Source of the DNA: Mixta hanseatica
Lineage (GTDB): Bacteria; Pseudomonadota; Gammaproteobacteria; Enterobacterales; Enterobacteriaceae
Reading direction: 5' to 3'
Length of the DNA: 64,000 bases
NCBI RefSeq assembly: GCF_023517775.1
Contig: NZ_CP082904.1
Location: 2,790,001 to 2,854,000 of the forward strand
Positions within the stretch are counted from its first letter, which is position 1, and the number at the start of each line of letters is the position of its first letter. The notes beneath the pieces are model-generated. The model was not told the origin of the DNA, did not search any database, and saw nothing but the letters and a program-made list of their open reading frames with translations. The translations under genes were made by a program, and so were the position numbers. Positions 57,514 through 63,691 of the stretch are shown here, piece by piece.

Positions 57514-58749
57514 ATGGCAAGACAGACCAAGCCCTTAAACAATACCGAAGTGAAGAACGCCAAAGCTGCTGAACGAGCATTGGTTCTTTATGACGGGGAT
57601 GGTCTGGAACCGCAGGTAACTCCCGGAGGCTCAAAACTCTGGCGGTTTCGTTATTACAAACCCTTCACTCGTAAACGGGCCATGATCAGCTTTGGTTCAT
57701 ACCCTTCCGTTTCGCTTTCCGAAGCCCGCCAAAATCGTGAATCAGCCCGCGCTCTTCTCAGCAAAGACGTTGACCCTCAAGAGCACAAAAAGGCAGAGCA
57801 ACTTCGTCAGAAGAGTGTGAGTGAAAGTACGTTTGAAAAAGTTGCAGCTGAGTGGTTTAAGACCAAAGAGGCAGCAGGATTAACAACTCACACTCTTAAC
57901 GATATCTGGCGTTCAATGAGTAAATATGTGTTCCCACATATTGGCTCTATGCCTATTTCTAACATTACAGCCCAACAGTTCATCGGATCCCTTAGCCCAA
58001 CTCATGCTACAGGCAGACTCGAAACTGTTAAAAGGTTGAGTCAGCGTATTAATGAGGTTATGGATTACGCTTTGAACTCTGGCTTAGTCACTTCAAACCC
58101 AGCGGCAAAAATCGGTAAGACGTTCCATAAGCCAAAAGTAAAACATCGCCCCGCCCTCTTACCTGAACAGCTACCTCTGCTTATGAAGAAGCTCGCATTT
58201 GCGAGCATTGGCAGACAGACGCGCTGCCTTATCGAATGGCAGCTCCTTACAATGACTCGACCGGCAGAAGCGGCGATGACACGCTGGGATGAGATCAATT
58301 TCGAGACAAAGGAATGGCACATTCCTGCTGGTCGCATGAAAATGAAACGTATGCATATTGTACCGCTGTCTGAGCAGGCACTTGCTGTGCTGGAAGTTAT
58401 GAAACCAATCAGCCAGCACAGATCACACGTTTTTCCCGGTTACCGCAATCCCCTGGAACCAATGAACAGTCAGACGGCAAACATGGCGCTAAAACGTATG
58501 GGCTTCAAAGGTATCCTTGTTGCGCATGGTATGAGATCCATAGCTTCAACGGTTCTCAACGAGAAGGGATTTCAACCTGACGTCATTGAAGCAGCACTGG
58601 CTCACATTGATACCAATGAGGTCAGGAGAGCTTACAACCGTTCTCAGTATCTTGATCAACGAAGAGAAATGATGGCTTGGTGGGGCGGACATGTTGAACT
58701 GTCAGCAAGCGGTAATTATAGCATTCACTCTGGCTTAGATTGGCATTGA
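57514..58749 (+). CDS. P4-type tyrosine integrase
   Basis: Site-specific recombinase of 411 residues: N-terminal DUF4102 arm-binding domain (1-90), core-binding SAM-like domain (about 105-195) and catalytic domain. Catalytic residues: R249 (MTRPAEA), a Lys in the 276-279 turn, H338-x-x-R341 (HGMR), H364 (LAH) and nucleophile Y374 (RRAYNR), so apparently active. Starts 212 bases after attL, as usual for tRNA islands. Followed by a terminator. Confidence 0.95.
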   Translation: MARQTKPLNNTEVKNAKAAERALVLYDGDGLEPQVTPGGSKLWRFRYYKPFTRKRAMISFGSYPSVSLSEARQNRESARALLSKDVDPQEHKKAEQLRQKSVSESTFEKVAAEWFKTKEAAGLTTHTLNDIWRSMSKYVFPHIGSMPISNITAQQFIGSLSPTHATGRLETVKRLSQRINEVMDYALNSGLVTSNPAAKIGKTFHKPKVKHRPALLPEQLPLLMKKLAFASIGRQTRCLIEWQLLTMTRPAEAAMTRWDEINFETKEWHIPAGRMKMKRMHIVPLSEQALAVLEVMKPISQHRSHVFPGYRNPLEPMNSQTANMALKRMGFKGILVAHGMRSIASTVLNEKGFQPDVIEAALAHIDTNEVRRAYNRSQYLDQRREMMAWWGGHVELSASGNYSIHSGLDWH

Positions 58750-59744: not shown

Positions 59745-60224
59745 ATGGACGAAATAGAAGGCTCACTTTACAAAAACTCCAATCTGTCACTCAGCCAGAA
59801 ACTTGAAAAGTCGCGAGCTGAGTTACTCGATCTGACAGCTAGAAATCGTTTACTTAACATACCAAAATCAAAAACTACAAAATTTTTAGAAGTAGTTAAT
59901 GAAAGGTCTGACATTCTGTTCAAGATGCTTTTTGAAGAAGGCAAGCCGTTCACTTTTCTTCATGGTCGAGAAGATAAAAAGACAGATGAAAGCAATGAGA
60001 ACAGTGAGACAGACTCAGAGTCTGAAGATATTATTTTCTTAGATGACTCCGAAACCAACCACAATGATACAAAACTCCAGACCAAGCTCACGCCAAAAAC
60101 ATTACAAAAAAAGTTATTAGATTTATATTATGACTCAAAGACCCTTGAAGAAGAGCAAGGCGTAAACATCCTGTTTCTATCGTTAGGATCGCTTAAATGG
60201 ATAGATCCTGTAGTGGTTTACTGA
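59745..60224 (+). pseudogene. DUF4011 helicase-type gene, N-terminal fragment
   Basis: The first ~154 native codons of a gene cut by the IS at 60209; the last residues (VVVY, stop) are IS-encoded. LEKSRAELLDLTARNRLLNIP (about 21-41) is the start of the DUF4011 domain, which opens very large proteins (often 1,500 residues or more) with a superfamily I helicase and frequently a Vsr-like nuclease and DUF3320. Such proteins recur in bacterial defence islands. An acidic low-complexity stretch lies at about 78-105. The remainder is absent from this window. Confidence 0.75.
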
Positions 60225-60280
60225 ATTTGGCCACCTGAACAGAGGTGATATGCTCACCTCTGAACATTACAGGTGCCTCA

Positions 60281-61449
<1,169 letters not shown>

Positions 61450-61488
61450 CCACTATATACGCATAAATTCATACCTTTGAATGAACTA

Positions 61489-61814: not shown

Positions 61815-61982
61815 ATGGCTATCTCTACTATCACCCCAGAAACGCTCACCCCCATCACGCATAATTCCATTCCTGTTATCACGACTGAACTGCTGGCGCA
61901 GCTGTATGGCACCCAGCGTCAGCGCATCACTAACAATTTCAACCGCAACCGTCGCTCAGTTCTAATCGGGATTTGCCGCTGA
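61815..61982 (+). pseudogene. Phage ORF6N-domain protein, truncated
   Basis: About 45 codons of an ORF6N (KilA-N-type, phage antirepressor family) domain: IPVITTELLAQLYGTQRQRI then TNNFNRNR, after AAGGAGG and an ATG at 61815. At about 61955 homology breaks off and the frame stops shortly after, where an unrelated minus-strand fragment begins. The normal protein is several times longer. Confidence 0.7.
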
Positions 61983-62305: not shown

Positions 62306-62483
62306 GGAGGAAATAAAATTATTAAAACAATGTCTTTTCTCCGATGATTTTTTGTGATGCCTGTCAATATTTTTGGTAAAAAATAAAAGTTATTTCCCCA
62401 CTTTAGTTAATTATTAAATTCTGCATGAAATAACATTCTGTTTGAGATGGGTATTTGTATTTTTATATGTCCAGTTGTTGTTA

Positions 62484-62512
62484 TTGACAAGAGCCATGCC
62501 TTACTTTAATTA
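62484..62512 (+). promoter_or_regulatory. Promoter of the microcin-like cassette
   Basis: Consensus -35 TTGACA (62484-62489), 17-base spacer, -10-like TAATTA (62507-62512), 54 bases before the cassette ATG, in a very AT-rich 260-base stretch with no other gene. Confidence 0.55.
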
Positions 62513-62565
62513 TTTTATTGAATCTAAGGATTCAAATTCAAAATTAAATAGAGAAGGAATTCATC

Positions 62566-62741
62566 ATGGAATTGTTTAATGAACAACAATTAACTCTAGT
62601 TACTAGTGCCAGTCGAAATGGTGGCTGGGAGGGGTACTGGGGGCACTGGCGGGCGGCTGCTTTAAATCCGAGGGCGGTAACGGTGGTGGTGGTGGTTCTG
62701 GCAGTAACTCCAGTTGTAGCGGCGATGGTTGTTCATGGTAA
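62566..62741 (+). pseudogene. Microcin-like precursor peptide, frame-interrupted
   Basis: ATG at 62566 after AAGGA. The first 15 codons, MELFNEQQLTLVTSA, match class II microcin leaders in length and spacing (compare MRTLTLNELDSVSGG of colicin V: L9, V12 and a small residue pair at 14-15). In the ATG frame the rest is an odd W/V-rich tail ending at 62748. One extra G in the GGGG at 62631-62634 would instead give SRNGGWEG then VLGALAGGCFKSEGG, a Gly run and NSSCSGDGCSW, stop at 62741. That is a Gly/Ser/Cys-rich bacteriocin-like core of about 43 residues. Frame loss, recoding or sequencing error cannot be distinguished here. Confidence 0.55.
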
Positions 62742-62747
62742 TTGGTA

Positions 62748-62948
62748 ATGAAGAATAAAATAATTAACGTCCTCGCAGTTATACTGGGTATTGCATTAGC
62801 TACATCATTAATGAACGGAGCCGGAGTTATAGATACGGGCTGGCCCGGCTTACCCGTAAACTTTTCTCGCTTCACGTTATTATTGTTATGTACGGCTGGG
62901 TGCATATACGTTTTCAAGAAAGTTTTAATATTTATTGGCGGGGATTAA
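62748..62948 (+). CDS. Two-helix membrane protein, probable immunity protein
   Basis: 66 residues: a helix at about 4-22 (NVLAVILGIALATSLM), a short loop with GWPGLPVN, a second helix at about 43-62 (LLLLCTAGCIYVFKKVLIFI). Size and topology are those of class II microcin immunity proteins. It begins six bases after the stop of the Gly-rich frame (and the ATG overlaps the stop of the other frame), implying translational coupling; its own Shine-Dalgarno is poor. No homologue recognised. A terminator follows. Confidence 0.6.
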   Translation: MKNKIINVLAVILGIALATSLMNGAGVIDTGWPGLPVNFSRFTLLLLCTAGCIYVFKKVLIFIGGD

Positions 62949-62962
62949 TTTTCGTGCCATTC

Positions 62963-62987
62963 AAGGCTCGCTACGGCGGGCCTTTTT
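62963..62987 (+). terminator. Terminator of the microcin-like cassette
   Basis: AAGGCTCGC-TACG-GCGGGCCTT followed by TTT, 15 bases after the immunity-like gene; a common phage-type terminator. Confidence 0.8.
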
Positions 62988-63103
62988 CATATCTGCGCCC
63001 CGGCGCTCCTTATTCAATCCGGGCGCCGGCGGAAGGAGTATGCGGCTGCGTCTGGTTCGATACACCTCGCGAGGGTATTTTCGGCACGCTATAGGTGCAT
63101 CGC

Positions 63104-63520
63104 CAGAAAACTGAGCAAAAAGAGGCGTCTCATGTTGCTATCCCGATCGGCGACGCGCTGGAATCGATCATAGACAGCAGCCGGGATAATGTGGCGAGTC
63201 CCTACGTTGTTCATCGCCTGCCGAAAAAACGCAGCAACCGTATTAGCCAGGAGGTGAACCACCCCACCCAGGTCGCGCCTGACTATCTGAGCCGCGCATT
63301 TTTGGCATTGAGGGGCCAGGTCGGCGTGGCAGCCAGTTTGCCTCCAGAGCAGCGTCCGACATTTCACGAGATTCGCGCGCTGGCCGCATTCCTGTTTAAA
63401 CAACAGGGCTGTGATCCGCAGGCGCGAATGGCACACGCTGATGCAAAATCCACGAAAATTTATACAGAGAACCACGTTGAATGGGTGCATGTGCCGCACG
63501 CGGAGATCAGGCCCATCTTT
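63104..63520 (+). pseudogene. Lambda-type phage integrase, C-terminal remnant
   Basis: The coding frame retains the second half of a tyrosine recombinase: SPYVVHRLPKK, VAPDYLSRAF, LPPEQRPTFHEIRALAAFLF (box II HxxR) and a degraded IYTENHVEWVHV end. The N-terminal arm-binding and core-binding domains are missing. It shows that a second, unrelated phage once integrated in this locus. Confidence 0.75.
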
Positions 63521-63577
63521 ATGTCTCGACAACGTAAAGGTAGCTTCTTACGCGCCGAAAGGCCAGGAGAAGCAACC

Positions 63578-63691
63578 ATGAAGCAGCAAACGGCAATCCT
63601 GATCGCCACCCTCGTTATAGCGGCGGCAGCGACCGTCCTACTGCTTAGCTCAGCCGTTGCTGCCGACCCAAACCGTTCTAATAAACAATGA
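63578..63691 (+). CDS. 37-residue single-helix membrane peptide
   Basis: ATG at 63578 with AGGAGA eight bases upstream; MKQQTAILIATLVIAAAATV and LLLSSAVAADPNRSNKQ give one helix (about 5-26) and a short polar tail. It is in frame with the integrase remnant, so it could be read as that ORF's tail, but the ribosome site suggests an independent small gene. Resembles short phage/toxin-like membrane peptides only in general form. Confidence 0.4.
   Translation: MKQQTAILIATLVIAAAATVLLLSSAVAADPNRSNKQ

What the first reader, a model, noticed from the sequence alone, without database searches (positions are those of the whole stretch)
62484..62987. Candidate undescribed microcin-type cassette in phage debris
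A compact unit reads promoter (TTGACA-17-TAATTA), AAGGA, precursor, two-helix immunity-like protein, terminator. The precursor leader MELFNEQQLTLVTSA has the exact length and residue spacing of class II microcin leaders, with SA in place of GG/GA. The alternative-frame core is Gly-rich with three Cys and many Ser, ending SCSGDGCSW, which is unlike colicin V, E492, H47, M or B17 as I know them. No export or modification genes are in the window, so it would rely on functions elsewhere.
Basis: partly seen in the sequence, partly recalled or inferred. Interest (0 to 1): 0.8.

Follow-up and report, generated by a model that had tools for sequence, protein, structure and literature searches.

The report
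Broken microcin gene with surviving immunity gene
This is the wreck of a small bacterial weapon gene of a known type (a microcin related to microcin PDI), whose neighbouring self-protection gene is still intact; apparently intact relatives sit elsewhere in this genome and in a sister species.

Summary
Promoter, leader, core tail, immunity gene and terminator have homologues in the same order. This genome carries a second copy with an open 118-aa precursor (C1:1208577), and sister species G007 an open precursor of the window's core type. In the window, leader (62566-62646) and core tail (62607-62738) lie in different frames. About 55 codons are missing (176 nt against 345 in G007), among them the first of two conserved cysteines, and Ser stands where the 10 other aligned rows have Gly in the leader. 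The family belongs with microcin PDI: the G272 relative matches all eight published McpM landmark positions. The 66-aa immunity ORF is intact and has homologues in 30 of 392 genomes sampled (E <= 0.001). In the genus, 6 of 9 cassettes have a broken or missing precursor, but all 9 keep an open immunity ORF. So the window most likely holds a resistance-only relic. C39 exporters lie elsewhere in the genome. A new, decayed member of a known kind; toxin-less bacteriocin immunity genes are already described.

The parts
62347..62641 (+). 5' conserved block (promoter, untranslated leader, start of precursor)
   Evidence: 85% DNA identity over 295 nt to G005:C1:709515-709809; 75% to G000:C1:1208478-1208656 over the inner part
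62484..62512 (+). promoter TTGACA-17-TAATTA
   Evidence: sequence; same spacing upstream of the precursor start in all five loci aligned
62554..62558 (+). ribosome-binding site AAGGA, 7 nt before ATG 62566
   Evidence: sequence; GG kept at this place in all five aligned loci
62566..62748 (+). 60-aa ORF, leader frame ('frame A'): residues 1-27 are microcin leader and start of core, the rest is read as out-of-frame translation
   Evidence: residues 1-28 75% identical to the open 118-aa precursor at G000:C1:1208577, E 5.6e-9; local score 125, 300 shuffles max 39; profile E only 0.24
62607..62741 (+). core-tail frame ('frame B'), C-terminal ~38 residues of a microcin, three Cys, ends GCSW-stop
   Evidence: best hit of the 32-homologue profile among the window's six-frame segments, E 2.3e-5; score 157 to the G007 precursor, 300 shuffles max 73
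62748..62948 (+). 66-aa immunity-type protein with two hydrophobic stretches (residues 5-23 and 45-63), intact; its ATG overlaps the stop of frame A (TAATG) and lies 6 nt after the stop of frame B
   Evidence: profile of eight other immunity proteins: E 1.7e-11, next window segment 1.4; 91% identical ORF in G002, 41% in G007 and G005; hydropathy
62959..63011 (+). 3' conserved block with intrinsic terminator (hairpin 62963-62984)
   Evidence: 94% over 53 nt to G005, 88% over 42 nt to G007; for the hairpin

Best explanation
A decayed microcin cassette of the microcin PDI/S group (class IIa), left in prophage debris. Ancestrally one promoter drove a ~115-aa precursor (15-residue leader cut after Gly-Ala/Gly-Gly by a C39-peptidase ABC exporter, then a Gly-rich core with conserved Cys) and a 66-aa immunity protein of the inner membrane. 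In this genome an internal loss of about 55 codons, with a change of frame, means that no complete microcin can be made (well supported, ~0.93). The immunity ORF stayed intact next to the conserved promoter. It most likely still protects the cell from the matching microcin of relatives (inferred). Shown: homology of the parts, frame split, open relatives, exporter genes elsewhere. Inferred: expression, membrane location, protection, and selection for it.
For: Open paralogue in the same genome. Eight homologues in the first protein search, 42 in the profile search; 31 of these 42 end in Cys-[Ser/Thr]-Trp and, by eye, 41 of 42 have GA or GG at the leader end (P0042 has GC). Open precursor of the window's core type in G007, with the immunity ATG directly after its stop. 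The two window frames match different ends of the family. Conserved Cys in 38 of 39, 39 of 39 and 36 of 36 non-gap rows at three columns of a 39-row alignment. The G272 relative, start taken at MSNIREL, has GG at 17-18, GA at 35-36 and Cys at 57, 90, 109, 118, the positions published for McpM (PMC5311971, abstract and passages). Immunity homology. Immunity ORF open in 9 of 9 cassettes of the genus against 3 of 9 precursors. dN/dS of immunity genes that stand beside broken precursors: window against G002:4469334 0.29 (6 synonymous, 6 nonsynonymous, P 0.04); G002:3744009 against G003 0.27 (4 and 4, P 0.08); pooled P 0.007. In the second pair the precursor remnants differ by several gaps, the immunity genes by none. 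Both C39 exporters of G000 have Cys/His/Asp at the spacing quoted for CvaB.
Against: The dN/dS tests rest on 20 differences in two pairs, and part of that divergence may predate precursor loss. G002:4469334 has lost the conserved promoter, and G002:3744009 and G003 lack the leader part, so an open immunity gene there need not be expressed. By profile alone frame A is not significant (E 0.24). No expression or protection data exist. A 66-codon ORF can stay open for some time without selection.
Confidence: 0.65

Rival explanations
1. The whole cassette is neutral debris: the precursor is dead and the immunity ORF is open only because it is short and the loss is recent.
For: It lies among fragments of phage genes; one G002 copy lacks the promoter; single dN/dS tests are weak (P 0.04 and 0.08).
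Against: Immunity ORF open in 9 of 9 cassettes of the genus while 6 of 9 precursors are broken; pooled dN/dS test P 0.007; promoter and terminator kept in the window copy.
Confidence: 0.28
2. The locus works as a microcin: either the 60-aa frame A product is itself active, or programmed frameshifting joins the two frames.
For: Promoter, ribosome-binding site and leader present; both frames recognisable.
Against: Frame A beyond residue ~28 aligns to nothing in the family (not searched on its own); the middle of the core, with the first Cys that is essential in McpM (PMC5311971), is missing however the frames are joined; the leader ends SA where the 10 other rows have Gly at that position; the open relatives read in one frame.
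Confidence: 0.04
3. Sequencing or assembly error in an intact gene.
For: G runs near the frame change; only one genome of this species was at hand.
Against: 169 nt fewer than in G007 plus a changed leader residue is not a base-calling slip; the contig is 4.3 Mb and the genome is rated 100% complete; other species show different breaks of the same kind of gene.
Confidence: 0.03

Closest known systems
Microcin PDI (McpM/McpI) and microcin S, class IIa microcins
   Same: Leader cut site, four-Cys layout, precursor with small immunity gene, C39 ABC exporter; the G272 relative matches all eight McpM landmarks
   Different: Window precursor is broken; many family members here have a 15-residue leader and a YGGQ[GA]xGFVGT block; no C39 exporter in the window
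Open paralogue G000:C1:1208577-1208930 between genes that read as queA and tgt
   Same: Promoter, leader and start of core (75% identity over 28 aa), immunity-type partner (E 1.6e-6), similar terminator
   Different: Complete 118-aa open frame; different core tail and immunity sequence
G007:C1 cassette (L056:1156-1704)
   Same: Same core tail type (score 157 against frame B) and immunity protein 41% identical
   Different: Open precursor with the middle of the core and a GA leader end
Orphan bacteriocin immunity genes of E. coli plasmids (PMC12546727, abstract and passages)
   Same: Immunity gene beside a truncated toxin gene, or without one
   Different: Here chromosomal, in another genus, in the PDI-type immunity family
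Class II microcins predicted by cinful in Enterobacterales (PMC9746304, passages and section 9)
   [quoted passage not shown] same component list
   Different: The text seen reports candidate precursors; 'pseudogene' does not occur in it. Its supplements were not readable here

Membership tests
class II microcin (working) | single open precursor with leader plus core | tested here: not met
   leader and core tail in different frames, middle missing
class II microcin (working) | leader ending GG or GA | tested here: not met
   SA in the window; Gly at that position in the 10 other rows aligned
class II microcin (working) | C39 ABC exporter and membrane fusion protein in the genome | tested here: met
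   two C39 exporters in G000, each beside a HlyD-type protein (HlyD model matched below its curated cut-off); one beside a TolC-family protein (above cut-off) and a 104-aa GG-leader ORF
class II microcin (working) | antibacterial activity | not testable with these tools
   none
microcin PDI/S group (by descent) | sequence homology of precursor parts | tested here: met
   frame B E 2.3e-5 by profile; frame A E 0.24 by profile but 5.6e-9 to the paralogue; widened profile of the same family E 4.7e-14 to the McpM-like ORF of G272
microcin PDI/S group (by descent) | four Cys, first two essential | tested here: not met
   window tail keeps three; the first lies in the lost part. This speaks against function, not against descent
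microcin PDI/S group (by descent) | direct comparison with the verified McpM sequence | tested here: inconclusive
   only published residue positions were compared, through the G272 relative
immunity protein of these microcins | small protein with two hydrophobic stretches directly after the precursor, homologous to others | tested here: met
immunity protein of these microcins | protects against the cognate microcin | not testable with these tools
   none
class IIb (siderophore) microcin | Gly/Ser-rich C-terminus with modification genes | not tested
   the tail ends Cys-Ser-Trp and aligns with PDI-type tails; modification genes were not searched for

The most novel reading that the evidence does not exclude
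In this genus PDI-type microcin cassettes are repeatedly converted into resistance-only loci: the precursor is destroyed in different ways while the immunity gene is kept by selection, and in the window the broken 60-aa ORF still serves immunity by ending in TAATG, so that ribosomes are handed on to the immunity start.
Probability: 0.24. Interest if true: 0.5.

Novelty: new member of a known kind. Interest (0 to 1): 0.34.

Why it matters
It turns a vague 'possible new microcin' into a step in microcin evolution: weapon lost, shield kept. The cassette set of one genus (open, broken, and reduced to immunity) lets the open question 'toxin loss or immunity gain' for toxin-less immunity genes, posed in PMC12546727 for plasmids, be tested on chromosomes. 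It also gives an immunity family without a Pfam or NCBIfam match above cut-off for the window protein that may find PDI-type cassettes which precursor searches miss: 30 of 392 genomes by the immunity profile against 9 of 392 by the precursor profile (the precursor profile was the narrower of the two, 8 close rows).

Tried and rejected
DNA searches of the cassette in E. coli genomes, plasmids and phages found, in the rows listed, only 36-41 nt around the terminator (22 of 5426 E. coli genomes, 20 rows listed; 1 plasmid; 1 phage). Scans of genome contigs with the immunity protein and with P0005, and of viral contigs with the immunity protein and the open precursor, found no relative, so phage carriage is not supported beyond the local debris. 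Plasmid tblastn with the open precursor and with P0037: no match; with the G004 precursor: four Enterobacter plasmids. Two of these four were opened: one has HlyD and C39 exporter genes next to the precursor, the other shows none within 8 kb. Pfam and NCBIfam gave nothing above cut-off for precursor or immunity protein; PDB, asked with the precursor only, nothing. Attempts to name the organism through plasmid contigs and phage records failed; I suspected Cronobacter, no call confirms it.

Corrections made on checking. A genus-wide run with the immunity profile added a ninth cassette (G003, precursor leaderless and split, immunity open). G412's immunity ORF is open over 70 codons; the stop counted lies at its end, so an earlier thought that both G412 genes are broken was wrong. 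A second immunity pair was tested (one search was the same script, which did not find the start). Because of these I raised the best explanation from 0.62 to 0.65, lowered the neutral rival from 0.30 to 0.28 and raised the novel case from 0.22 to 0.24.

Counting caveats. One search lists 36 matches; I used the 28 with E <= 1e-5 and dropped 8 weaker ones (three inside ORFs of 434-482 aa, two short pieces with stops, three at E 2e-5 to 6e-5). Of the 28, 13 have an open precursor frame upstream (G107, G132, G004:C9, G350, G110, G297 twice, G272, G214, G152, G000:1208956, G380:3711604, G420), 9 a broken, fused or leaderless one (window, G002 twice, G005, G004:C1, G165, G412, G347, G406) and 6 none that I could recognise (G231, G380 twice, G024, G267, G349). 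G132 has no ATG start in its frame, G152 lacks the usual C-terminus, and the leaderless form of G347/G406 is shared by two species and may not be broken. G420's precursor was missed by the profile and seen only, so other 'none' verdicts may be wrong too. The six broken cassettes of the genus are not six independent losses: G002:3744009 and G003 share the leader loss.

Full report
What is there. The window (G000:C1:2790001-2854000) holds at 62347-63011 a compact unit: promoter TTGACA-17-TAATTA, AAGGA, a 60-aa ORF (62566-62748), a 66-aa ORF (62748-62948) and a hairpin terminator. By pattern alone promoter and terminator are no better than chance. Their conservation is the evidence: the five loci aligned by their precursor starts (window, the second copy in this genome, G005, G004:C1, G007) all have TTGACA, 17 nt, TA[AG]TTA, and the terminator block is 94% identical in G005.

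The unit has a family. A DNA search of the own genome found a second place 75% identical over promoter and leader. It encodes an open 118-aa protein between genes that read as queA and tgt (names recalled from the translations). Searching with it found 8 proteins, then 42 by profile. The full-length ones are mostly 111-120 aa, with a short leader ending in GA or GG, a Gly-rich body and Cys at three nearly invariant columns (38 of 39, 39 of 39, 36 of 36 non-gap rows of a 39-row alignment). Of the 42, 31 end in Cys-[Ser/Thr]-Trp.

The window copy is broken. Frame A (62566-62646) matches the leader and start of core of the paralogue (score 125; 300 shuffles, max 39). Frame B (62607-62738) matches the tail of an open precursor in the sister species G007 (score 157; 300 shuffles, max 73). 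A profile of 32 homologues, run on 2644 six-frame segments of the window and four loci, put frame B first and frame A second among the window's segments (E 2.3e-5 and 0.24; the latter is below the inclusion threshold, the next one has 0.45). The two homologous stretches overlap for about 20 nt in a G-rich run that resembles both relatives, as one internal deletion that also changed the frame would leave. From ATG to the frame B stop are 176 nt, in G007 345, so about 55 codons are missing, the first family cysteine among them. The leader also ends SA, where the 10 other rows aligned have Gly at that position.

Which known kind. The precursor profile, widened by seven precursors from fetched loci, hits an ORF in G272 with E 4.7e-14. 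Counted from MSNIREL, that ORF has GG at 17-18, GA at 35-36 and Cys at 57, 90, 109 and 118. These are the two cleavage sites and four Cys reported for McpM, the precursor of microcin PDI (PMC5311971, abstract and passages); there, Cys 57 and 90 are needed for inhibition. So the family lies with microcin PDI. [quoted passage not shown] I could not check whether these exact sequences are in their supplements.

The immunity gene. A profile of eight small proteins found downstream of other precursors, without the window copy and its G002 relative, finds the window ORF at E 1.7e-11 among 1825 segments (next 1.4). Without the G005 relative as well it is 3.9e-7 (next 0.9). The window protein has two hydrophobic stretches (mean hydropathy 2.11 and 2.07); so have five of the six other genus copies computed, the second stretch of G005 being weaker (1.47). 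The family occurs in 30 of 392 Enterobacteriaceae genomes, 21 of 154 genera, at E <= 0.001; some of the weakest hits look spurious.

Precursor lost, immunity kept. In the 8 genomes of the genus the immunity profile finds 9 cassettes in 6 genomes. The precursor is open in three (G000 queA-tgt, G004:C9, G007) and broken or missing in six: the window; G002:C1:4469334, only the last codons left; G002:C1:3744009, leaderless remnant fused to the immunity frame; G003:C4:100140, leaderless and split; G005, one stop; G004:C1, frame split. The immunity ORF is open in all nine. The window and G002:4469334 immunity genes differ at 12 sites, dN/dS 0.29, P 0.04. The G002:3744009 and G003 pair differs at 8, dN/dS 0.27, P 0.08; their precursor remnants share the leader loss and differ by several gaps, the immunity genes by none. 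Pooled P is 0.007. This is suggestive, on 20 differences. Across the 28 clearer immunity loci, 13 have an open precursor frame and 15 do not, with the caveats in Tried and rejected. Against expression: the retained copy at G002:4469334 has lost the conserved promoter.

Export. The C39 peptidase family has two places in this genome, both outside the window. One (C1:4286251) lies in a run of RcsB-like response regulator, TolC-family protein, HlyD-type protein, C39 ABC exporter and a 104-aa ORF starting MRNLTLNEISQVSGG. Its Cys30, His103 and Asp119 have the spacing of the CvaB triad Cys32, His105, Asp121 quoted in PMC9746304; the other exporter (C1:2899430, beside a radical-SAM peptide maturase) has the same spacing. 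G005, with a broken precursor, shows no C39 exporter in that search; G006 has neither exporter nor cassette; G003, with a broken precursor, does have an exporter.

How it most likely works. Shown: homology of parts, broken precursor, open immunity ORF, exporters in the genome. Inferred: the promoter still transcribes the unit; ribosomes finishing frame A at TAATG start the immunity ORF; the protein sits in the inner membrane and blocks the matching microcin. The cell would then be immune to, but not a producer of, this type, while carrying an apparently intact second microcin gene. Orphan immunity genes, some beside truncated bacteriocin genes, are described on E. coli plasmids, 53 of them for microcins (PMC12546727, abstract and passages), so the state is known in kind. 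The text searches run listed no paper on this locus.

Noticed in passing
G000:C1:1208577-1208930 (L002:1600-1956) and L002:1934-2161: Open 118-aa PDI-group microcin precursor with overlapping 75-aa immunity-type ORF, inserted between genes that read as queA and tgt.
   Followed up: yes
L017:4858-10880 (G000:C1:4282857-4288879): Response regulator, TolC-family, HlyD-type, C39 exporter and a 104-aa ORF with a GG leader: a complete-looking microcin export locus with its own precursor candidate.
   Followed up: partly
L016:6890-11521 (G000:C1:2896889-2901520): XyeB-like radical SAM gene (below the model's cut-off), apparently split into two ORFs, followed by HlyD-type protein and C39 exporter; a 297-aa ORF with no NCBIfam match follows.
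   Followed up: partly
window 57514-58749, 61815-61982, 63095-63691: Tyrosine integrase beside tRNA-Pro, an anti-repressor fragment and a second integrase remnant: prophage debris on both sides of the cassette.
   Followed up: partly
window 60209-61454: IS3-family (IS911-like) element 95% identical to a stretch of a Salmonella phage record, cutting the 59745-60224 ORF.
   Followed up: no
L063 (G000:C3, 37.8 kb contig): First 6 kb 100% identical to conjugative plasmids of Salmonella, E. coli and Enterobacter: a widely shared plasmid.
   Followed up: no
L103:2778-3305 (G380:C1:3711277-3711804): Two immunity-type ORFs in tandem after one precursor.
   Followed up: no
L112:1253-1704 and L113 (G003:C4, G002:C1:3744009): Leaderless, differently broken precursor remnants with nearly identical intact immunity genes, about 13 kb from a C39 exporter in both genomes.
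   Followed up: partly
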